This document shows positions 28,729 through 37,899 of a stretch of 64,000 nucleotides of DNA, piece after piece. This DNA is from Mycolicibacterium sp. HK-90 (GTDB lineage Bacteria; Actinomycetota; Actinomycetes; Mycobacteriales; Mycobacteriaceae): the NCBI RefSeq assembly GCF_030486405.1, contig NZ_CP129613.1, forward strand, positions 6,014,001-6,078,000. The letters run 5' to 3'. Position numbers and translations under genes: made by a program. A model generated the notes under the pieces. It worked only from the letters and a program-made list of their open reading frames with translations, was not told where the DNA came from and searched no databases. Position 1 is the first letter of the stretch, and every line of letters begins with the position of its first letter.

Positions 28729-29388
28729 TTAGATCGCGTCGCCCAAGCCTGCAAGCAACGCCTGCCGGCTGGCCCGCACATGCTCGCGCATGACACGTTC
28801 GGCGCTGTCACCGTCCTTGGCGATGATGAGGTCGAGCACGACATGGTGTTCACGGTCGGACTGCAGGGGGCGTCCCGGCTGACTCAACGAGGTATTGACC
28901 AACCGCGCGTAGGCCAGCTGATTCATCAGCATGCGGTAATGCGCTTCGAGCTTGTTGTTGTCGGCTCCGACGATCAGCAGGTCGTGGAACTCTTCCACCA
29001 GTTCGGCGTAGCGGGGCCGGTCGTCGTGCGCGACAGCCTCGTCGGCCTGCCGGAGGTTCTCCTCCAACTTGTCGATCTCGGGCACCCGTCCACGCTGCGA
29101 GAGCAACCGCGCGGCGGCGCCTTCGAGCAGTTCCTTCATCTGGAACAACTCGGTGATCTCGCGACGTGACGGCGTGGTGACGAACGTCCCGACCCGCGGC
29201 CGGATCTCGATGAGCCCCTCGGTCTGCAGCTGCTTGAACGTCTCACGCACCGGGGTTCGGGAGACCCCGAATTCCTCGGCGATGGCCAGCTCGGAGATGT
29301 TCACCCCCGGGGAGATCTCGCCCGCGATGATGCGGCGCCGGATCTCCTCGATCAACCGACCCTGTATCGAGCCGTTACTGCTGGTCAC
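28729..29388 (-). CDS. GntR/FCD-family regulator of the BCCT cluster
   Basis: 219 aa. Winged helix at residues 8-72 (ELAIAEEFGVSRTPVRETFKQLQTEGLIE), FCD domain at about 80-210 with typical metal/effector residues (EEFHDLLIVGADNN, DREHHVVLDLI). GTG 29388 behind GAGGAG. It is the last gene of the operon BCCT-SnoaL-flavin reductase-GntR (12 nt after the flavin reductase) and probably controls both divergent operons from the 31.9-32.2 kb region. Confidence 0.88.
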   Translation of the reverse strand: MTSSNGSIQGRLIEEIRRRIIAGEISPGVNISELAIAEEFGVSRTPVRETFKQLQTEGLIEIRPRVGTFVTTPSRREITELFQMKELLEGAAARLLSQRGRVPEIDKLEENLRQADEAVAHDDRPRYAELVEEFHDLLIVGADNNKLEAHYRMLMNQLAYARLVNTSLSQPGRPLQSDREHHVVLDLIIAKDGDSAERVMREHVRASRQALLAGLGDAI

Positions 29389-29400
29389 CGCTGCTCCTCA

Positions 29401-29901
29401 CTAGCCCAGTGCGGCCAGGTTGCCACCATCGAAGAACTTACCGGCGCTGTAGACCATGGGATGCCGATCGTCGACCTCGGCGTGCACCACCCGGCAGATG
29501 AACACGGTGTGGGTGCTGGCCTGCAGGCGCTCGCGGATCTCTACCTCCATACCCGCCGAGCTGCGGTCGATCATCGGACTGCCGAAAGGCCCTGCATGCC
29601 AGCCCAATCCACTGAACTTGTCGTCGGATTTCCCGGCGAACCGACCCACCACGTCGAGTTGGTCGGTGGACAAGATGTTGATCGCGAGATGCCCGGCGCG
29701 GAACAGGCAGTCGTGTGTCGACGACGTGTGCTGCACGGCGACCATGACCACCGCCGGATCCAGCGAGATGCTCGCGAACGCGTTGACCGCCAGCCCGCGG
29801 GGCTTCTCCCCGTCGAGGGCCGCGACGACGGTCACTCCGGTGACGAACTGCCGGTTGACCCGTTTCATCAGGTCGATGTCCGGCGTCACGGGTGCGATCA
29901 C
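29401..29901 (-). CDS. flavin reductase (HpaC/RutF-like), partner of the monooxygenase
   Basis: 166 aa. Flavin_Reduct fold: MKRVNRQFVTGVTVVAALDGEKPRGLAVNAFASISLDPAVVMVAVQ, SSTHDCLFRAGHLAINILS, C-terminal HTVFICRVVHAEVDD. Such enzymes reduce FMN or FAD with NAD(P)H and hand it to a two-component monooxygenase; the luciferase-like monooxygenase at 35766 is the obvious partner. GTG 29901 overlaps the stop of the SnoaL-like gene (GTGA). Confidence 0.88.
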   Translation of the reverse strand: MIAPVTPDIDLMKRVNRQFVTGVTVVAALDGEKPRGLAVNAFASISLDPAVVMVAVQHTSSTHDCLFRAGHLAINILSTDQLDVVGRFAGKSDDKFSGLGWHAGPFGSPMIDRSSAGMEVEIRERLQASTHTVFICRVVHAEVDDRHPMVYSAGKFFDGGNLAALG

Positions 29902-30326
29902 CGGTCCTGCCCCACCGCGATGATGCCGAGTGCGGTCAACAGCGCACGCGGATCCCAGGTGACGTGCTCCTCCACGATGCGGTCTCCCTCGAAACGCGCG
30001 AAGGTCGCCCCGCTGACCGCGACCTCTCGCTTGGTGGCCGGGACACCGAGGAACGAGTGTTCGTGACTGCCCGTGCTGTGCCAGCGGATCGCGGCCCGAT
30101 CCCCCTCCACCACGACGTCGTCGACAACAGTGAGCAGATCGGGGAAGGCCGAGCGGGTCGCGGTGATCGAGGCCTTGAACTCGTCACGCCCCAGGGTGTT
30201 TCCGGTTCCGCTGATGCGCTCGTATCTCTCGGCGAGCAGCTCATCGAACGCATCCACCTCGCCGCGGTCCCAAGCGGCTTCCCACGCGGCCTGGATGCGC
30301 AGGCGGCGGGACTCGTTGTCAGTCAT
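29898..30326 (-). CDS. SnoaL-like / nuclear transport factor 2-fold protein
   Basis: 142 aa from ATG 30326 behind GAGAGGA. Cone-shaped NTF2-like fold suggested by length and motifs (AAWEAAWDRGEVDAFDELLAERYERI at the N-terminus, AFPDLLTVVDDVVVEGDRAAIRWHSTGSHE, FARFEGDRIVEEHVTWD). Members include polyketide cyclases, isomerases and hydratases, so it could act on a ring-cleavage intermediate of the pathway. It lies between the BCCT transporter (14 nt) and the flavin reductase (4-nt overlap). Confidence 0.8.
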   Translation of the reverse strand: MTDNESRRLRIQAAWEAAWDRGEVDAFDELLAERYERISGTGNTLGRDEFKASITATRSAFPDLLTVVDDVVVEGDRAAIRWHSTGSHEHSFLGVPATKREVAVSGATFARFEGDRIVEEHVTWDPRALLTALGIIAVGQDR

Positions 30327-30340
30327 GGTCGATCCTCTCG

Positions 30341-31933
30341 TTACTTGTCGATGAGTTCTGCGATGGGAGTCTCCGGCGTGGCGTGGCGCTGGTCGGCGAT
30401 CAAGTCCTTCCAGAACGACACCGCCAGACACGCGATGATGATGAGGAACGGCAGGGAGGCGACGATCACGGTGTTCTGCAGGGCATTCAGGCCGCCGGCG
30501 AACATCAGCACCACGGCGGTGATGCCGGTCAGCACACCCCACAGGATCAGCACGCCGCGGCGCGGCGTCAGGGTGCCGTCGCTGGTCATCATGCTGAGCA
30601 CGAAGGTGTTGGCGTCCGCACCCGAGATGAAGAAGATCAGCACCAGCAAGATCGCCACAACCGAGGTGACCGAGGCGAGCGGGAAGTGCGCCAGGGTCGC
30701 GAAGAACGCGCTGTTGATGTCGTCGGCGGTCTGCTCGGCGATGTCACCACCCTCGAACATGTCAACGTGGATGGCGGTACCGCCGAACACCGTGAACCAC
30801 GTGAAGAACACCGCGCTGGGCACGACCAGGACGCCGACGATGAAGCCGCGGATCGTCCGGCCCTTGGAGATCCGGGCCAGGAACACACCGACGAAGGCGC
30901 CCCACGACACCCACCATGCGAGCATGAAGTAGGTCCACCACTGCATCCACTCGAGGTCGCCGAAGGCGGTGCCCTGCAGGCTCATCCGGAAGAAATCGGT
31001 CGCCCAGGTGCCGAGCGATTCGATGTAGAGGTTGGCAATGAAGACCGTGGGCCCGACGACGAGCATGAAGACGAACAGCGCAACGGCCATCGCCGTGCTG
31101 CCCTGGCTGAGGTATTTGATGCCCTTGCTCACCCCGGTCACCGCCGACATGGTGAAGATCGCGGTGACCGCAGCGATGATGACGACCTGAGCGACGTTGC
31201 TGACCGGAATGCCGAACAACGTGAACAGTCCGTTGTTGACCTGAAGCGCACCGAGTCCGAGCGATGTGGTGGTGCCGAACAGCGTGGCGAACACCGCCAG
31301 CACGTCGATGAGTTTCCCGATCGGCCCATTCGCCCGGTCGCCGATCAGCGGGACGAACAACTGGCTGACCAGGGTGCGCCGGCCCATTCGGTATGTGGAG
31401 TAGGCGATGGCCAGGCCGAACACCGCGAAGATCGCCCAGGCGTGCAGGCCCCAGTCGAAGTAGGAGTACTGCATGGCGCGCACCGCGGCTTGGGGGGTAC
31501 CGGGTTCGGCAAGCCCGTGCGGTGGCGCGGCCAGGTGCGAAACCGGTTCGGCCACACCATAGGACACCAGACCGATGCCCATCACCGCGCTCAAGATCAT
31601 CGCGAGCCAGGTGATGGTCTTGAACTGGGGGCGGTCGGTGTCCCTGCCCAGCCGGACGTCGCCATACGGGCTGAACGCCAGGAACACGAGGAATACCAGG
31701 ATACCGAGAGTCACCACCAGGTAGAGCCAGCCGAAGCTACCGGTCACCCAGTTCAACGACGACGTGGTCACCTTGTTGAGGTTGTCGGTGAACAGCACCG
31801 CCCATACGACAAAGACGGCGGAGATGGCCACCGAGGTCCAGAAGACGGTCCCGAGACGACCGGTCGGCCCGACCAGACCGTCGCGTTCGACGGTGACGGG
31901 CGTCACCGGCCCGGCACTGAGATCACTGGTCAT
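30341..31933 (-). CDS. BCCT-family transporter
   Basis: 530 aa with 12 predicted helices; takes up betaines, choline or carnitine-like quaternary compounds using sodium or proton gradients. The family signature is the Trp-rich QWWTYFMLAWWVSWGAFVGVFLARISKGRTIRGF (binding-site region), with GIGLVSYGVAEPVSHL near the third helix. First gene of the minus-strand operon. Its position next to an oxygenase pathway suggests it imports the pathway substrate rather than an osmolyte. Confidence 0.93.
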   Translation of the reverse strand: MTSDLSAGPVTPVTVERDGLVGPTGRLGTVFWTSVAISAVFVVWAVLFTDNLNKVTTSSLNWVTGSFGWLYLVVTLGILVFLVFLAFSPYGDVRLGRDTDRPQFKTITWLAMILSAVMGIGLVSYGVAEPVSHLAAPPHGLAEPGTPQAAVRAMQYSYFDWGLHAWAIFAVFGLAIAYSTYRMGRRTLVSQLFVPLIGDRANGPIGKLIDVLAVFATLFGTTTSLGLGALQVNNGLFTLFGIPVSNVAQVVIIAAVTAIFTMSAVTGVSKGIKYLSQGSTAMAVALFVFMLVVGPTVFIANLYIESLGTWATDFFRMSLQGTAFGDLEWMQWWTYFMLAWWVSWGAFVGVFLARISKGRTIRGFIVGVLVVPSAVFFTWFTVFGGTAIHVDMFEGGDIAEQTADDINSAFFATLAHFPLASVTSVVAILLVLIFFISGADANTFVLSMMTSDGTLTPRRGVLILWGVLTGITAVVLMFAGGLNALQNTVIVASLPFLIIIACLAVSFWKDLIADQRHATPETPIAELIDK

Positions 31934-31990
31934 GGGTGCTCCTCGACATCACAGGCCAAGAGGCCGAACCGGCCAGCGGCAAGCAGCTGT

Positions 31991-32013
31991 GGCATACAAC
32001 AGAATGTAATGCC
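31991..32013. promoter_or_regulatory. candidate operator in the divergent BCCT/AA_synth region
   Basis: Imperfect inverted repeat: GGCATaCA on the left, TGTaATGCC on the right, 58 bp upstream of the BCCT start in the 249-bp divergent intergenic region. It is the best symmetric site I see there for the GntR protein. The rest of the region (32014-32182) has AT-rich stretches suitable for promoters but nothing decisive. Confidence 0.4.
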
Positions 32014-32182
32014 GCTCACAGAGCACTGTCAACGGCCCCCGCGCCACAAGCCGTTCGACTGGACCGATATGCAGTGCAATCTAGGTATCCACCTGGTTAT
32101 TCATTCAATTTCCGCGCGCCGGGATGCGGCCGCAACGGGCGGCCCTTGACCAATCGCACGGGGAAGCCCTAGCGTTTCTGGC

Positions 32183-32803
32183 ATGCAAGACGCGGCGTCT
32201 CCGAGCGACATCGGCCTTCGCAAGCTGGTCGTCTACCGCGAGTCGGTGGTGACCGAGGCGGGCGAAACACCGGTTCGCCCCGCGCTGCAGGCCAGCGTCG
32301 CCGCGGTGATGCGCAACCCTTGGGTGGGAACCGGTCCGTCCCGCGATCTGTCGCCAGAGGTGACCCGGATCGCCCCGGCACTGGCTCGGTTGGTGACCGA
32401 GCGCCTCATCGACGCACTCGGCGGCGTCGATGCGATCGAGGCGTTCGGCAAAGCCGCGATTGTCGGAAGCACGGGCGAGATCGAGCACGGCGGCGCACTG
32501 ATCCACACGCCGTACTTCGGCAACCTGATGCGCGAGTTCCTCGACGGCGAGTCGATCATCTGCTTCGCCGACAGCCGCACCGAAGCCGGTGAGCCCCTTG
32601 TGGTTCCGATGTGGCACAAGACCAAGGCAGCCACGCGTAGCCACTATCAGACCGTGAGTACTCGCGTGCCCGACGGCCCGCGCGCCGACGAACTCGTCAT
32701 CGTCGCGGCCGGGTCGACCGGCCCCCGTCCGCATCCCCGCATCGGGGACCGCACCACCGACCCCGCCGTCACCGTCAAGAGTCTGGAGAGTGTCCTGTCA
32801 TGA
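32183..32803 (+). CDS. AA_synth (DUF1185) family protein, copy 1
   Basis: 206 aa. Family landmarks, shared with the next gene: KLVVYRESVVTEAG, RNPWVGTG, EAFGKAAIVGSTGEIEHGGALIHTPYFG, SHYQTVSTRV, DELVIVAAGS. The family is annotated as amino acid synthesis but has no established reaction. Being first in a catabolic operon suggests an enzyme (perhaps amidase or hydrolase) acting on an intermediate. It overlaps copy 2 by 4 nt (ATGA). Confidence 0.82.
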   Translation: MQDAASPSDIGLRKLVVYRESVVTEAGETPVRPALQASVAAVMRNPWVGTGPSRDLSPEVTRIAPALARLVTERLIDALGGVDAIEAFGKAAIVGSTGEIEHGGALIHTPYFGNLMREFLDGESIICFADSRTEAGEPLVVPMWHKTKAATRSHYQTVSTRVPDGPRADELVIVAAGSTGPRPHPRIGDRTTDPAVTVKSLESVLS

Positions 32804-33351
32804 AGCTGCGCAAGATCGTCACCGTCGTCGAGGAGATCCGCACCGAGGGCGGCCGCGAGGTCAACCCACCAGCCCGCGTCGCCGTCGTCGCTGCGGTAAT
32901 AGAAAATCCGTGGGCTGGTCAGGGTTTCGTGGAAGATTTGGCTCCCGGCATCGACGCAAACGCATCCGATGTGGGCGCACTGCTGGCGCCGCTCGTGCTC
33001 GAGGCCCTTGCGGAGCCCGCCGAGGCCTACGGCAAGGCCGCGATCGTCGGGCTCAACGGGGAGGTCGAGCACGGCTCGGGCCTGATCCACACGCTGAAGT
33101 TCGGCGACCACTTCCGCAAGGCTGCCGATGCCACCACACTGCTGCCCGCAGTCGAGAAGCGGGGCCCGGCAGGCGTCATCTTCGACATCCCACTCAAGCA
33201 CATCACTGACGCCACCATCCGATCGCACCATCAGACCGTGGAGGTGCGCATCGCCGACGCCCCGCACGCCGACGAGATCGTCATCGCGCTGGCGGCTGCC
33301 TCACAAGGCCGGCCTCAGCAGCGCCTGGCGCCGCTGAGCAGCGAGAAGTAA
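32800..33351 (+). CDS. AA_synth (DUF1185) family protein, copy 2
   Basis: 183 aa paralogue of the preceding protein: KIVTVVEEIRTEGG, ENPWAGQGF, EAYGKAAIVGLNGEVEHGSGLIHTLKFG, SHHQTVEVRIADAP. Both copies keep the AYGKAAIVG...GEVEHG core; the surroundings diverge, so they may form a heteromer or act on successive intermediates. It lies 7 nt before the hydrolase gene. Confidence 0.82.
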   Translation: MKLRKIVTVVEEIRTEGGREVNPPARVAVVAAVIENPWAGQGFVEDLAPGIDANASDVGALLAPLVLEALAEPAEAYGKAAIVGLNGEVEHGSGLIHTLKFGDHFRKAADATTLLPAVEKRGPAGVIFDIPLKHITDATIRSHHQTVEVRIADAPHADEIVIALAAASQGRPQQRLAPLSSEK

Positions 33352-33358
33352 CGGCCCC

Positions 33359-34090
33359 ATGGCTGCGCCGACGCTCGTGCTGTTGCACGGGGTGGGGCTC
33401 GACCACACCGTGTGGCAGCCGGTGACCGGACTGCTGGTCGACCGGTACACGGTGATCACGCCGGACCTGCCCGGGCACGGAGTCCGGCCGCCGGCCCCGG
33501 CGGGAGTGACGTTGTCGGAGTTGGCCGATGGCGTCGCCGGCGAAATCCCGGCCGGATCGCATCTGGTCGGCTTCTCCCTCGGCGCGCTCGTCGCGCAGCA
33601 TCTGGCGGTGCACCGGCCGGAACTGGTCTCGACCTTGACCTCGGTCGCTTCGGTATGTCAACGCACACCGGACGAGCGGGCCGCCGTGCTGGCCCGCCTC
33701 GAGACCGCGGCCGACGACATGGCGGCGAGTTCGGCCGCGTCCCTGCACCGTTGGTACGACGGAACCGGAGTCAGCCCCGAGCAAATCGCCCGGACCGAGG
33801 CCACCCTGCTGGCCAACGACCGGGCCAGCTTCCTGAACTGCTACCGGGTGTTCGCGACGGCCGATGCCGAGATCGGCCCGCAACTCGGACAGATCAACGT
33901 GCCCGCACTGGCTGTCACCGGCTCCGACGACCCCGGCTCCACCCCGGAGATGACCGAAAGACTCGCGGCGGCCATTCCCGACTGCGAAGCCGTCGTCATC
34001 CCCGGCGCGCGGCACATGCTTCCCGTGCAATGTCCTCGCGAACTCGCCGACTGCCTCATGTCATTCATCGGAAGGTCCGTACATGTCTGA
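33359..34090 (+). CDS. alpha/beta hydrolase (RutD / enol-lactonase-like)
   Basis: 243 aa. Oxyanion motif LLHGVGLDHTVW, nucleophile Ser73 in GFSLGA, later Asp in TGSDDPGS and His in GARHMLPVQCP. Resembles 3-oxoadipate enol-lactonases and RutD-like amidohydrolases. In this operon it would hydrolyse an ester, lactone or N-acyl intermediate after ring opening. Its stop overlaps the aldehyde dehydrogenase start by 8 nt. Confidence 0.87.
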   Translation: MAAPTLVLLHGVGLDHTVWQPVTGLLVDRYTVITPDLPGHGVRPPAPAGVTLSELADGVAGEIPAGSHLVGFSLGALVAQHLAVHRPELVSTLTSVASVCQRTPDERAAVLARLETAADDMAASSAASLHRWYDGTGVSPEQIARTEATLLANDRASFLNCYRVFATADAEIGPQLGQINVPALAVTGSDDPGSTPEMTERLAAAIPDCEAVVIPGARHMLPVQCPRELADCLMSFIGRSVHV

Positions 34091-35570
34091 TACCCCGAAA
34101 CTGCAGCACTTCATCGGCGGAAAGCCCACCGAGCCGAACTCCGCCGAGTATTTCGAGAGCACCAATCCGGCCACGCGAGAGGTGCTCTATCGAGCCGCGC
34201 GCGGCAGCGCCGCGGACATCGACGCGGCTGTGGCGTCGGCCACCGAGGCCTTCAACGACCCGCGGTGGCGAGATCTGAGCCAGACCAAGCGCGGGCACCT
34301 GCTGCGCCGTCTCGGTGACCTGATCGGTGAGCACGCTGAGGAACTCGCCCGCTCGGAGTCGCTCGACAACGGAAAGCTGCTGCGTGAGATGCGCGGCCAG
34401 CTCGCCACGCTGCCCGAGTATTACTACTACTACGCCGGTTTGGCTGACAAGATCCACGGCGACGTCATCCCTACCTCGGACCGTCAGGTGCTCAACTACA
34501 CCGTGCGTGAGCCGCTAGGGGTGGTCGGCGCGATCACTCCCTGGAACTCACCCCTGACGTTGACCACCAGCAAGCTCGCCCCGGCATTGTGCGCGGGGAA
34601 CACCGTGGTGATCAAGCCGTCCGAATACACGTCGGCGACCGTGCTGAAGCTGGCCGCGCTGGTCATCGAGGCGGGCTTCCCGCCCGGTGCGGTCAACGTG
34701 GTCACCGGGTTCGGTACCGAGGCAGGCCAGCCACTCGTGGATCACCCTGGGCTGGCAAAGATCTCGTTCACCGGCAGCACCGCGACCGGGTCGCGGATCG
34801 CGTCCGCGACGGCAGGCCGGTTCATCGGGTCGACGCTGGAACTCGGCGGCAAGTCCCCCAACATAGTGTTCGACGACGCCAACGTGGCCAACGCCGCCAC
34901 CGGTGTGGTGGCAGGCATCTTCGCGGCTGCCGGACAGACCTGCATCGCGGGCAGCCGCGTGTTCGCCCAGCGCGCCATCTACGACGAGCTGCTGGAGCGC
35001 GTCGCCGACCGGGCCCGCAGCATCCGGATGGGCAACCCGCTCGACGACGACACCGAGCTTGGCCCGCTGGCGTTCGAAGACCAGCGCGACAAGGTGGCGT
35101 CCTACGTCGACCTCGGCCGGGCAGAAGGCGCCCGGGTGCTCACGGGCGGGCAGGCCACCGACGGCGGTCTCGGCGGGTTCTTCTACGAACCAACGGTTCT
35201 GGTGGATGTCACCAATCAGATGCGCGTGGTTCGCGAAGAGATCTTCGGACCGGTCGCGGCGATCATGCCGTTCGATTCCGAGGACGAGGTCGTGCAGCTG
35301 GCCAACGACACCGAGTACGGTCTGGCGGCCGGCGTGTGGACGTCCAACCTGGCGCGGGCCCACCGGATGGCCGGCCGGCTCGACGCCGGCACCATCTGGG
35401 TCAACACCTACCGGGCCATGTCCCCGATGTCTCCCCGGCAGGGCTTCAAGAGCAGTGGCGTCGGCATCGAACATGGCACCGAGACCATGAAGGAATACAC
35501 CCGGCTCAAGAGCGTGTGGATCAACACCAACGAGGGGCCGGTTCCAGACCCGTTCGTGATGCGGAGCTGA
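34083..35570 (+). CDS. NAD(P)-dependent aldehyde dehydrogenase
   Basis: 495 aa class 1/2 aldehyde dehydrogenase. Catalytic Asn155 (ITPWNSP), Lys178 (VIKPSEYT), general base Glu253 (LELGGKSPN) and nucleophile Cys287 (GQTCIAGSR) are all present. Oxidises a linear aldehyde to an acid; semialdehydes are typical in ring-cleavage pathways of this layout. A single base separates it from the tautomerase gene. Confidence 0.93.
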   Translation: MSDTPKLQHFIGGKPTEPNSAEYFESTNPATREVLYRAARGSAADIDAAVASATEAFNDPRWRDLSQTKRGHLLRRLGDLIGEHAEELARSESLDNGKLLREMRGQLATLPEYYYYYAGLADKIHGDVIPTSDRQVLNYTVREPLGVVGAITPWNSPLTLTTSKLAPALCAGNTVVIKPSEYTSATVLKLAALVIEAGFPPGAVNVVTGFGTEAGQPLVDHPGLAKISFTGSTATGSRIASATAGRFIGSTLELGGKSPNIVFDDANVANAATGVVAGIFAAAGQTCIAGSRVFAQRAIYDELLERVADRARSIRMGNPLDDDTELGPLAFEDQRDKVASYVDLGRAEGARVLTGGQATDGGLGGFFYEPTVLVDVTNQMRVVREEIFGPVAAIMPFDSEDEVVQLANDTEYGLAAGVWTSNLARAHRMAGRLDAGTIWVNTYRAMSPMSPRQGFKSSGVGIEHGTETMKEYTRLKSVWINTNEGPVPDPFVMRS

Positions 35571-35571
35571 C

Positions 35572-35769
35572 ATGCCACTCGTCGAAGTCACCATCGCCGA
35601 GGGCCGTTCTGGCGAGCAGATCCGCGCCATGATGCACGAAGTGCACGAGGCCGTGCTGCGGACCGTGAACACGCAGCCTGAGCACATCCGCGTCATCGTC
35701 CGCGAGGTTACCCGGACTCATTGGGCAACAGGCGATCTCACCATCGCCGAGATGAAGGAGCAATCATGA
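35572..35769 (+). CDS. 4-oxalocrotonate tautomerase-family protein
   Basis: 65 aa, exactly the size of 4-OT subunits. The initiator Met is followed by Pro (MPLVEVTIAEGRSGEQ), which after Met removal is the catalytic N-terminal proline. Usually a hexamer that interconverts enol and keto acids. Overlaps the monooxygenase start by 4 nt (ATGA). Confidence 0.88.
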   Translation: MPLVEVTIAEGRSGEQIRAMMHEVHEAVLRTVNTQPEHIRVIVREVTRTHWATGDLTIAEMKEQS

Positions 35770-36809
35770 GATTTTCGTTGTTTGTGCACATGGAGCGGTG
35801 GGACGAGTCGGTCAGCCACCGTCAGCTCTTCGAGAACCTCGCCGAGCTGTCCCTGATGGCCGAGGCCGGCGGCTTCTCCACGGTGTGGATCGGTGAGCAC
35901 CACGCCATGGAGTACACGATCTCGCCGAGCCCGATGCCACTGCTGGCCTACCTGGCCGGTAAGACCTCGACGATCCGGCTGGGCGCGGGCACCATCATCG
36001 CACCGTTCTGGAATCCCATCCGGGCCGCGGGCGAATGTGCGCTGCTCGACGTGATCAGCAACGGCCGCATGGAAGTTGGCTTGGCCCGCGGCGCGTACCA
36101 GATCGAGTTCGACCGCATGATGCCCGGGCTGTCCGCCGCCGAGGGCGGCAAGCACCTGCGCGAACTGGTGCCCGCGGTGCGCAAGCTGTGGCAGGGCGAC
36201 TACGCGCACGACGGCGAGATCTGGCAGTTCCCGACGTCGACGAGTGTGCCCAAGCCCGTGCAGGAGCCGATGCCGCCCATGTGGATCGCGGCACGCGACC
36301 CCGATTCGCACGACTTCGCGGTGGCCCAGGGCTGCAACGTGATGGTGACCCCACTGATGAAGGGCGACGAGGAGGTCGTCGACCTCAAGCACAAGTTCGA
36401 TACCGCTGTCGGCAATCACCCGGAACTGCCCCGCCCCGAAATCATGGTGTTGCGCCACACCCACGTTCACGCCACCGAGGACCCTGACGGCTGGCGCCCC
36501 GCCGCCGCGGCGATCTCGAAGTTCTATCGCACCTTCGACGCGTGGTTCGGCAACAAGACCACTCCCGTCAATGGATTCCTCGAACCCAGCCCCGAGTCGA
36601 AGTTCGCCCAGCGTCCCGAGTTCGAACTCGAGTCCCTGCACCGGACCGCGATGATCGGCACACCGGACGAAGTCATCGAGCGTCTGCGGTCCTACCAGGA
36701 ACTCGGCATCGATGAGTTCAGCTTCTGGTGCGACAACAGCCTGCCGCACGACGAGAAGCGCAAGTCGCTCGAACTGTTCATCAAAGAGGTCGTTCCCGCC
36801 TTCCAGTAA
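35766..36809 (+). CDS. luciferase-like flavin-dependent monooxygenase
   Basis: 347 aa bacterial-luciferase-fold protein from ATG 35766 behind AAGGAG. Landmarks: FSTVWIGEHHAMEYTISPSP, IRLGAGTIIAPFWNPIRAAGECALLDVISNGRMEVGLARGAY, HTHVHATEDPDGW, IGTPDEVIERLRSYQELGIDEFSFW. EHH near residue 45 is typical of two-component FMNH2 monooxygenases such as those opening N-heterocyclic rings (PyrA, TgnA-like). The flavin reductase gene in the divergent operon is the likely reductase. Substrate unknown. Confidence 0.9.
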   Translation: MRFSLFVHMERWDESVSHRQLFENLAELSLMAEAGGFSTVWIGEHHAMEYTISPSPMPLLAYLAGKTSTIRLGAGTIIAPFWNPIRAAGECALLDVISNGRMEVGLARGAYQIEFDRMMPGLSAAEGGKHLRELVPAVRKLWQGDYAHDGEIWQFPTSTSVPKPVQEPMPPMWIAARDPDSHDFAVAQGCNVMVTPLMKGDEEVVDLKHKFDTAVGNHPELPRPEIMVLRHTHVHATEDPDGWRPAAAAISKFYRTFDAWFGNKTTPVNGFLEPSPESKFAQRPEFELESLHRTAMIGTPDEVIERLRSYQELGIDEFSFWCDNSLPHDEKRKSLELFIKEVVPAFQ

Positions 36810-36819
36810 GGAGCCAACA

Positions 36820-37155
36820 ATGAGCGGACTCCGCAGCGGTGTACGGATCAGCGCCGTCGACCTACAGGATGCCCAGCGCCGCGCCGCCATCCAGCGGGTC
36901 GCCGCGCCCGAGCAACCCGTGCTGCTCGACATCGAGGTGTTGATCGACCGAGACACCCGCGCGGCGTTCGACGCGCTCAGCGCTGCGCCCGCAAGCAGCG
37001 CGTTGCGTTACGTCGGCACGCCGCGCGGGCTCGCCGGCCTGATCGCCGACGTGCAGCGTCTCGGTATCGCCGACGGTGTGGTGCTCAAGCCTCTCAACGA
37101 CAGCCCGGTCACGGACCTCATGTTGGAGGAACTTGCGCCGGGGCTGTGCGCCTGA
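36820..37155 (+). CDS. small protein resembling a luciferase-like monooxygenase C-terminus
   Basis: 111 aa from ATG 36820 behind AAGGAG. The first 60 residues show no motif I know. The second half (RYVGTPRGLAGLIADVQRLGIADGVVLKPLNDSPVTDLMLEELAPGL) looks like the C-terminal helix-loop of luciferase-like monooxygenases (GTPEEVADRI..GADGFVL..). It is last in the operon, 10 nt after the full-length monooxygenase, so it may be an accessory subunit or a shortened paralogue. Confidence 0.65.
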   Translation: MSGLRSGVRISAVDLQDAQRRAAIQRVAAPEQPVLLDIEVLIDRDTRAAFDALSAAPASSALRYVGTPRGLAGLIADVQRLGIADGVVLKPLNDSPVTDLMLEELAPGLCA

Positions 37156-37185: not shown

Positions 37186-37899
37186 TCAGCCGGCGAACGG
37201 GTCCGCAGCCGCGGCGATACGCGCGGCGGCATCGTCGAGAATCGCCTCCCCGTGGCCGAACCCGGCGCGCTGCGCACCCGTCGCCGCGAGTTTGGCGACC
37301 GACTCGGCCAGCTCCACGCGGTCGGTGTTGAACACCCCGAGTATCACCTGGCCGTTGAACTCCGCGACCACGTCACCGGTGAGCACCGCATCGGCAGCCG
37401 GCAGATACAGCGCGATGCTGCCCGGAGTGTGGCCGGGCACGCCGATCACCCGTGCCCCGCCGGCGAAGTCCAGCACGTCACCGTCGCCCACTGCCCGGTC
37501 CACCCGGCACGCCGGACCGTGCGGGGACGCATCGAAGTCGGGCCGCAGCGTCCGCTCCCCGTCCGTCAACACCGGCAGCGGCCCCGGTTCGTCACCGCGG
37601 ACGAACTCGGCATCGCCCTTGCCTGCAATGACCTCCACGTCGGACCAGTCGGCGATCTCGGCGGCCGCACCACAGTGGTCCTCGTGAAAATGGGTCAGCA
37701 CGATGCGCTTGACGTGAATCCGCCGCAGGCCCAGATCGGTGAGCGCATCAGCGATGAGCTCGGCGCTGTCCGGCCACCCGGTGTCGATCAAGGTCACACC
37801 GTCAGGCTCGATCCACAGATAGCTGTTGAGCAGGTGAGCCTGGCCGCCGGGAATCCGTAGCCGGTAGAGCGACTTCGCCATCTCGAGTAGGTCGGGCAT
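37186..37899 (-). CDS. metallo-beta-lactamase-fold hydrolase
   Basis: 237 aa. Zinc motif LTHFHEDHCG with His70, His72, Asp74, His75; further ligands in GVPGHTPGS and LTGDVV; C-terminal GFGHGEAI. Glyoxalase-II/lactonase-like size. The start could be ATG 37899 or 37881 (MAKSLYRLRIPGG); neither has a strong ribosome-binding site. Convergent with the catabolic operon and downstream of recR; substrate not deducible. Confidence 0.85.
   Translation of the reverse strand: MPDLLEMAKSLYRLRIPGGQAHLLNSYLWIEPDGVTLIDTGWPDSAELIADALTDLGLRRIHVKRIVLTHFHEDHCGAAAEIADWSDVEVIAGKGDAEFVRGDEPGPLPVLTDGERTLRPDFDASPHGPACRVDRAVGDGDVLDFAGGARVIGVPGHTPGSIALYLPAADAVLTGDVVAEFNGQVILGVFNTDRVELAESVAKLAATGAQRAGFGHGEAILDDAAARIAAAADPFAG

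What the first reader, a model, noticed from the sequence alone, without database searches (positions are those of the whole stretch)
28729..37155. Apparent uptake-and-ring-cleavage pathway for a quaternary or N-methylated compound
Two divergent operons contain a BCCT betaine-type transporter, SnoaL-like protein, flavin reductase and GntR on one side, and two AA_synth proteins, alpha/beta hydrolase, aldehyde dehydrogenase, 4-OT tautomerase and a luciferase-like monooxygenase on the other. The oxygenase, reductase, aldehyde dehydrogenase and hydrolase set is what trigonelline (TgnA-D) and pyridine (PyrA etc.) degraders use to open N-heterocycles with two-component flavin enzymes. A BCCT importer points to a charged quaternary substrate such as trigonelline, homarine or another betaine. 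The exact gene combination is not one I recognise as described in mycobacteria. It lies exactly between gatD and recR, which in M. tuberculosis are close neighbours.
Basis: partly seen in the sequence, partly recalled or inferred. Interest (0 to 1): 0.8.

Follow-up and report, generated by a model that had tools for sequence, protein, structure and literature searches.

The report
Trigonelline-type ring-opening operon in mycobacteria
This mycobacterium carries a two-part gene cluster that looks like a rebuilt version of the known bacterial pathway for importing and breaking open trigonelline, a plant betaine, though what it really feeds on has not been tested.

Summary
The genes are as described: GntR/flavin reductase/SnoaL/BCCT diverging from two AA_synth/alpha-beta hydrolase/aldehyde dehydrogenase/4-OT/luciferase-like monooxygenase (LLM), plus an unnamed 111-aa ORF. 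The LLM is 51% identical to an annotated Acinetobacter TgnB and forms a clade beside the TgnB clade. The set matches the tgn (trigonelline) operon of that plasmid and of Sinorhizobium pSymA. It is not peculiar to this genome: eight of its genes recur in at least 46 of 47 actinobacterial loci examined, and an LLM 81-83% identical sits in tgn-like islands of Pseudomonas. Yet it is sporadic: 10 of 198 genomes of the genus, own included. The transporter varies: BCCT in 23 loci, NCS1 permease in 18, both in 4, neither in 2; BCCTs also stand in 4 of 18 other proteobacterial clusters. Actinobacterial additions are SnoaL (fused to the reductase in Arthrobacter), a second AA_synth and usually a tautomerase. 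Best reading: uptake and ring cleavage of an N-methylpyridinium carboxylate, most likely trigonelline. Residue differences at the barrel mouth and disagreeing LLM and dehydrogenase trees leave another substrate possible. New variant of a known kind; no reaction was tested.

The parts
28729..29388 (-). GntR/FCD-family regulator
   Evidence: Pfam GntR 67 bits, FCD 88 bits; present in 46 of 47 actinobacterial loci
29401..29901 (-). Flavin reductase, TgnA-like (N-terminal domain only)
   Evidence: Flavin_Reduct 129 bits; 38% over 148 aa to annotated Acinetobacter TgnA
29898..30332 (-). SnoaL-like protein, probable partner of the reductase
   Evidence: SnoaL 101 bits; fused to the flavin reductase in Arthrobacter dokdonellae
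30341..31933 (-). BCCT transporter (530 aa)
   Evidence: PF02028 591 bits; TIGR00842 483 bits over its cut-off 408, but glycine-betaine equivalog NF047988 576 bits under its cut-off 650
31991..32001 (+). Candidate operator site GGCATACAACA in the divergent promoter region
   Evidence: motif G[GC]CAT[AG]CAA[CG]A in 30 of 47 upstream regions, 2.4/kb against 0.07/kb over whole loci; motif chosen from the same sequences
32183..32803 (+). AA_synth paralogue 1
   Evidence: PF06684 183 bits; 42-46% to AA_synth of the Acinetobacter, Sinorhizobium and Pseudomonas clusters
32800..33351 (+). AA_synth paralogue 2
   Evidence: PF06684 202 bits; 44-50% to the same AA_synth proteins
33359..34090 (+). alpha/beta hydrolase in the TgnD-like position
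   Evidence: Abhydrolase_6 86 bits; 31% to the hydrolase of the Acinetobacter tgn operon
34083..35570 (+). aldehyde dehydrogenase, TgnC-like
   Evidence: 46% to annotated TgnC; best match to TgnC in the own genome, 47% against 41% for the next
35572..35769 (+). 4-OT-type tautomerase with Pro after the initiator Met
   Evidence: PF01361 45 bits; found in 39 of 47 actinobacterial loci
35766..36809 (+). luciferase-like monooxygenase, TgnB-like oxygenase (347 aa)
   Evidence: 51% identity over 346 aa to annotated TgnB; tree; AF2 model pLDDT 89, luciferase fold
36820..37155 (+). unnamed 111-aa ORF, mycobacterial copies only
   Evidence: no Pfam or NCBIfam match; in 12 of 47 actinobacterial loci, all 12 mycobacterial

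Best explanation
It is an actinobacterial version of the trigonelline (tgn) catabolic operon. Proposed working: the BCCT imports a zwitterionic N-methylpyridinium carboxylate, most likely trigonelline (N-methylnicotinate). The flavin reductase (paired with SnoaL) supplies reduced FMN to the LLM, which uses O2 to cleave a ring C-C bond. The TgnC-like dehydrogenase oxidises the aldehyde/hydroxylactone formed. The alpha/beta hydrolase, helped by the AA_synth proteins and the tautomerase, breaks the N-formyl-enamine acid down to formate, methylamine, CO2 and succinate semialdehyde, and a succinate semialdehyde dehydrogenase encoded elsewhere finishes it. GntR controls both operons from the shared promoter region. 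Shown here: gene content, homology, recurrence of the set, transporter exchange and a shared upstream motif. Inferred: every reaction, the substrate and the regulation. The reaction scheme of the Acinetobacter pathway is recalled; its paper was not held. That its first step is ring opening by TgnA/TgnB is stated in PMC8269262 (passage read).
For: LLM 51% to annotated TgnB, with 89 of 347 residues invariant across 37 clade-A and 15 TgnB-clade sequences. Same operon content on the Acinetobacter plasmid with tgnA/B/C named and on S. meliloti pSymA; a strain without pSymA does not grow on trigonelline (PMC4207669, passage read). TgnC, TgnA and AA_synth homology and the TgnC best-hit test. Pseudomonas carries an LLM 81-83% identical to the window's in clusters with AA_synth, hydrolase, dehydrogenase, short reductases, GntR, NCS1 and a CMD 76-79% identical to that of the tgn plasmid, in 3 of 3 stretches checked. 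A gene annotated as succinate semialdehyde dehydrogenase beside the Arthrobacter copy and a 43% relative beside the Nocardioides copy. JGI names 4 of the 120 listed homologues trigonelline monooxygenase, oxygenase component; 11 others bear a general alkanesulfonate-monooxygenase-type JGI name.
Against: The window LLM lies beside, not inside, the TgnB clade. Barrel-mouth segments carry fixed differences (A74T, F115Y, M193Q) and frequent ones (Q112S, H235A). The dehydrogenase tree groups actinobacteria with Agrobacterium/Thalassospira rather than with TgnC (long branches flagged). The hydrolase is only 31% identical and GntR 26-36%. The C-terminal domain of TgnA and a clustered SSADH are missing here. 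The tgnB name on the Acinetobacter plasmid is an annotation, and the S. meliloti evidence is at the level of the replicon.
Confidence: 0.58

Rival explanations
1. Same chemistry, different ring: the cluster opens another N-methylpyridinium or pyridine carboxylate (for instance homarine or N-methylisonicotinate), and the extra AA_synth, SnoaL and tautomerase serve its different intermediate.
For: Position beside the TgnB clade, fixed barrel-mouth differences, genes seen only in the actinobacterial loci, discordant dehydrogenase tree.
Against: An LLM 81-83% identical stands in Pseudomonas clusters whose CMD, NCS1, AA_synth and GntR resemble those of the tgn operons; hand-picked barrel-mouth segments agree more between the clades than the rest (53 of 80 against 130 of 267 positions). 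PMC8269262 argues that TgnAB would be sterically hindered on homarine (passage read).
Confidence: 0.25
2. Pyridine-type (Pyr) or pyrazine-type (Tpd) pathway for an uncharged N-heterocycle.
For: Similar enzyme kinds by recall; NCS1 permeases without BCCT in 18 of 47 loci suit uncharged heterocycles.
Against: BCCT transporters in 27 of 47 loci and in four proteobacterial clusters; among the 60 plasmid records listed the only specific name is tgnB. PyrA and TpdA sequences were not obtained, so there was no direct test.
Confidence: 0.08
3. The LLM is an F420-dependent or other mycobacterial luciferase-like oxidoreductase and the neighbours are unrelated.
For: Mycobacteria have many F420-dependent LLMs (recalled); profile matches to such families.
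Against: All F420 family scores among the 25 of 28 families shown are under their cut-offs (e.g. TIGR03619 100 against 167); a flavin reductase is conserved in 46 of 47 loci; 51% to TgnB.
Confidence: 0.03

Closest known systems
Trigonelline (tgn) operon of Acinetobacter (annotated on plasmid NZ_CP094644; TgnB is UniProt Q6F9F6 according to a figure legend of PMC11354265)
   Same: GntR, AA_synth, hydrolase, flavin reductase, LLM and aldehyde dehydrogenase; NCS1 permease as in many actinobacterial copies
   Different: Two divergent operons; reductase without the C-terminal domain; SnoaL, second AA_synth and tautomerase added; BCCT here; no CMD, DUF1330 or SSADH in the cluster
S. meliloti pSymA cluster
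   Same: Same six core families; SSADH at the end of the cluster
   Different: ABC importer, 311-aa reductase; LLM 51% identical
Pseudomonas tgn-like clusters (L051, L130, L131)
   Same: LLM 81-83% identical; AA_synth, hydrolase, dehydrogenase, short reductases, GntR, NCS1
   Different: CMD in all three, no 4-OT, SnoaL or BCCT match in the stretches; a RibBA-type riboflavin gene in L131; in three genomes the dehydrogenase and AA_synth lie 12-18 kb from the LLM
Agrobacterium/Thalassospira LLM cluster
   Same: Reductase, dehydrogenase, LLM (45%), hydrolase, CMD, AA_synth; betaine-type ABC importer beside the Agrobacterium copy
   Different: Outlying LLM clade, other regulator; substrate unknown
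Pyridine (Pyr) and tetramethylpyrazine (Tpd) pathways (recalled)
   Same: Two-component flavin ring opening followed by hydrolysis
   Different: Not compared; sequences not obtained

Membership tests
Trigonelline tgn operon | TgnB oxygenase (LLM) | tested here: met
   51% over 346 aa, 364 bits; but in a clade beside the TgnB clade, not within it
Trigonelline tgn operon | TgnA reductase of about 310 aa | tested here: inconclusive
   N-terminal flavin reductase domain 38%; C-terminal 150 aa absent in the 166-aa protein; that domain shows no likeness to SnoaL by profile comparison
Trigonelline tgn operon | TgnC aldehyde dehydrogenase | tested here: inconclusive
   46%, and best match to TgnC in the own genome; the tree does not join it to the TgnC clade
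Trigonelline tgn operon | TgnD hydrolase | tested here: inconclusive
   31% to the operon hydrolase; alpha/beta hydrolases are many
Trigonelline tgn operon | TgnE succinate semialdehyde dehydrogenase in the cluster | tested here: not met
   none in the cluster; 44-46% relatives elsewhere in the genome; one beside the Arthrobacter copy
Trigonelline tgn operon | AA_synth and GntR beside the enzymes | tested here: met
   GntR similarity low (26-36%)
Trigonelline tgn operon | turns over trigonelline | not testable with these tools
   needs an assay
BCCT transporters | TIGR00842 above cut-off | tested here: met
   482.6 against 407.55 bits
Glycine betaine BCCT | NF047988 above cut-off | tested here: not met
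   575.5 against 650 bits
Uracil Rut pathway | RutF and RutD equivalogs above cut-off | tested here: not met
   RutF 57 against 255, RutD 54 against 239 bits
Pyridine Pyr pathway | PyrA orthology | not tested
   no PyrA sequence obtained

The most novel reading that the evidence does not exclude
The actinobacterial/Pseudomonas LLM clade is a functionally separate branch that opens a different N-methylated pyridinium betaine. In actinobacteria the SnoaL-reductase pair, the doubled AA_synth and the 4-OT (a possible decarboxylase/tautomerase of a formylsuccinate-like intermediate, standing in for the CMD of proteobacteria) form a new lower pathway, with BCCT and NCS1 carriers exchanged for the same solute.
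Probability: 0.25. Interest if true: 0.65.

Novelty: new variant of a known kind. Interest (0 to 1): 0.5.

Why it matters
Trigonelline accumulates in higher plants and was also measured in marine particles (PMC8269262, passages read). The finding predicts, from sequence, that scattered mycobacteria and other actinobacteria can use it or a close relative. It puts the poorly understood AA_synth family (PF06684) in a catabolic setting that recurs in Actinomycetota and Pseudomonadota. It also gives a natural experiment in which carriers of two families, BCCT and NCS1, replace each other beside one enzyme set, which makes their substrate assignment directly testable.

Tried and rejected
Chromosomal TgnB of A. 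baylyi ADP1 and PyrA were sought and not obtained: the trigonelline paper (PMC5948990) is not held, and no ADP1 record was among the rows listed. An annotated TgnB on an Acinetobacter plasmid was used instead. The idea that the TgnA C-terminal domain is a hidden SnoaL was tested by profile comparison and rejected (probability 0.1%); a NUDIX likeness was weak (3.1%) and is not claimed. The idea that the Pseudomonas dehydrogenase simply belongs with TgnC was weakened by the tree. GC content gave no island signal: 0.65-0.68 across the cluster against 0.64-0.71 around it. The palindrome at the AA_synth1 start (32177-32190) was set aside because it overlaps the start codon. F420 and Rut readings were rejected on cut-offs. 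Paper searches on homarine, trigonelline with BCCT, trigonelline with mycobacteria and pyridine with PyrA (most of these lists were cut to the best 10-20) listed no paper whose title describes this cluster; only listings and the cited passages were seen, and the library misses most subscription papers.

Rows dropped or chosen: LLM tree: 122 loci with a match; 10 duplicates and one row with a stop (L028) dropped; 37 of the 112 left (window included) chosen by hand. Residue comparison: 37 clade-A, 15 TgnB-clade, 2 outlying rows and L096. Dehydrogenase tree: 32 chosen loci plus window and two SSADHs. AA_synth comparison: identical rows counted once.
Full report
Observation. Searches confirm the two divergent operons at the stated place, with the small corrections given in the observation check. 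The window lies in a 6.49-Mb single-contig genome; the nearest LLM relatives are from Mycolicibacterium mageritense and M. brisbanense, 97% each.

Recurrence. A scan of genome contigs gave 487 relatives of the LLM, of which the best 80 were kept and read: 46 actinobacterial and 34 Pseudomonas or Paucimonas loci, all 81% identical or more. With an Arthrobacter dokdonellae plasmid this makes 47 actinobacterial loci, each read over at most 19 kb. Present in: LLM, hydrolase and dehydrogenase 47 of 47; GntR, reductase, SnoaL, AA_synth 1 and AA_synth 2 46 of 47; tautomerase 39 of 47. L034 is a truncated copy. The transporter is a BCCT (at least 60% to the window's) in 23, an NCS1 permease in 18, both in 4 and neither in 2; PF02133 was confirmed on seven actinobacterial NCS1 examples. 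The cluster is sporadic: 10 of 198 genomes of the genus, own included; 4 of 296 of the class, own included; 8 of 293 of the order of the L047 genome, that genome included. recR lies within the fetched flanks in 5 of 13 mycobacterial loci, so the gatD-recR site is shared by only some.

Kinship to tgn. A plasmid search with the LLM found 325 records at E 1e-60; in a spread list of 60 of 422 records at E 1e-25, identity falls from 43.6% to 32% or less with nothing between, so the family is well set apart. It includes an Acinetobacter plasmid whose genes are named tgnA, tgnB and tgnC: GntR, AA_synth, hydrolase, tgnA, tgnB, tgnC, cytosine permease, porin-like protein, SSADH, CMD. S. meliloti pSymA has GntR, AA_synth, hydrolase, reductase, LLM, dehydrogenase, ABC importer and SSADH, and a strain without pSymA does not grow on trigonelline (PMC4207669, passage read). 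Identities of the window proteins to the Acinetobacter ones: LLM 51%, dehydrogenase 46%, reductase domain 38%, AA_synth 42 and 44%, hydrolase 31%, GntR 36% over 81 residues. TgnC's best match in the own genome is the window dehydrogenase, 47% against 41% for the next.

Trees. Of 347 residues, 89 are invariant in 37 clade-A and 15 clade-B sequences, among them H8-M9-E10-R11, E44-H45-H46, R108, R177-D178, H182 and H231. Segments at the barrel mouth (picked by hand from the predicted strands) agree between the clade consensuses at 53 of 80 positions against 130 of 267 elsewhere (Fisher P 0.007), but some differ consistently. The dehydrogenase tree (35 rows) puts the actinobacterial proteins with the Agrobacterium/Thalassospira pair, and Pseudomonas with L096 and L097, with a long-branch warning. 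The two trees therefore do not agree on the nearest kin, which limits the claim to 'tgn-type'.

Pseudomonas. The LLM there is 81-83% identical to the window's. In three genomes (G001, G099, G256) AA_synth and the best TgnC relative lie 12-18 kb from the LLM on the same contig. Two of these were opened (L130, L131): both hold AA_synth, hydrolase, dehydrogenase, a short reductase, CMD (79% to that of the Acinetobacter plasmid), GntR, DUF1330 and NCS1. A RibBA-type riboflavin gene (Pfam check on L131) and, by eye, ABC importer genes lie between. In L051 the genes are compact, with CMD at 76%.

Transport. NCS1, by annotation or homology, is in 4 of 18 (L099, L104, L115, L120). The BCCTs of L096-L098 are 36-39% identical to the window's, while the own genome's second BCCT is 46%, which suggests separate recruitment (inference). 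The window BCCT is over the general BCCT cut-off and under the glycine-betaine one.

Added parts. SnoaL and reductase are one protein in Arthrobacter (SnoaL 12-132, reductase 164-304), so they probably work together. Both AA_synth paralogues keep polar residues that are invariant or nearly so (K79, E88, E90, H91, H97, R106, R141, H143, D153, R171, R175 in paralogue 2 numbering), so both look like enzymes. The solved AA_synth structures found are 2qtp and 3byq, without a named function. CMD was found in 6 of 9 proteobacterial loci (L095-L099, L101-L104), in 3 of 3 Pseudomonas stretches and in 1 of 47 actinobacterial loci, weakly; the tautomerase in none of those 12 and in 39 of 47. A shared decarboxylation or tautomerisation role is a hypothesis; it leans on the recalled fact that malonate semialdehyde decarboxylase belongs to the tautomerase superfamily. 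The hydrolase matches, weakly and among many others, alpha-(N-acetylaminomethylene)succinic acid hydrolase 3kxp (E 1e-10), whose reaction resembles that expected of TgnD (recalled).

Regulation. The motif G[GC]CAT[AG]CAA[CG]A occurs in 30 of 47 regions upstream of AA_synth 1 (46 loci and the window), 2.4 per kb against 0.07 per kb over the whole loci, whose count includes these hits. Window site 31991-32001. The motif was picked from the same sequences, so this is a lead, not a test.

Structure. AF2 model of the LLM: pLDDT 89, pTM 0.90. The best ten PDB matches are luciferases, RslO1, a 'novel monooxygenase' and a PKS/NRPS oxygenase domain at 21-25% identity, so no close solved relative shows the pocket.

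Verdict. A tgn-type uptake and ring-opening operon in an actinobacterial variant; trigonelline is the likeliest substrate, untested.

Noticed in passing
L129 (own genome 503000-522000), AA_synth at genome position 511132-511656: A third AA_synth gene followed by an amidohydrolase, SDR-like protein, tautomerase, dehydroquinase-II-like protein, DAO-type oxidase and an aldehyde dehydrogenase 45% identical to the SSADH of the tgn plasmid: possibly a second catabolic locus with AA_synth.
   Followed up: partly
window 36820-37155: 111-aa ORF with no family match, found in 12 of 13 mycobacterial loci and in no other of the 47 actinobacterial loci; by eye its end resembles the C-terminus of some LLM proteins, untested.
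   Followed up: partly
L100 1-3388: The Arthrobacter plasmid copy is flanked by NCS1, NUDIX, riboflavin kinase and SSADH genes; the Pseudomonas island L131 carries a RibBA-type gene: flavin supply genes sometimes travel with the pathway.
   Followed up: partly
L102 6205-8004: Mesorhizobium ciceri has a 600-aa protein annotated as hydrolase that matches both the hydrolase and the flavin reductase, apparently a fusion.
   Followed up: no
L034: The Streptomyces aurantiogriseus copy lacks reductase, SnoaL and both AA_synth genes and seems to have a shortened hydrolase: an apparent internal deletion.
   Followed up: no
L007 1300-1872, and L008, L011, L012, L013, L028, L041, L046: An isochorismatase-family relative lies near eight actinobacterial copies, all eight of which also have an NCS1 permease; a different isochorismatase-family gene follows the LLM in some Pseudomonas loci.
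   Followed up: no
window 37186-37899: MBL-fold hydrolase gene between the cluster and recR, also beside the cluster in L003, L004, L005 and L108; scores under the cut-offs of the 25 of 69 NCBIfam families shown.
   Followed up: no
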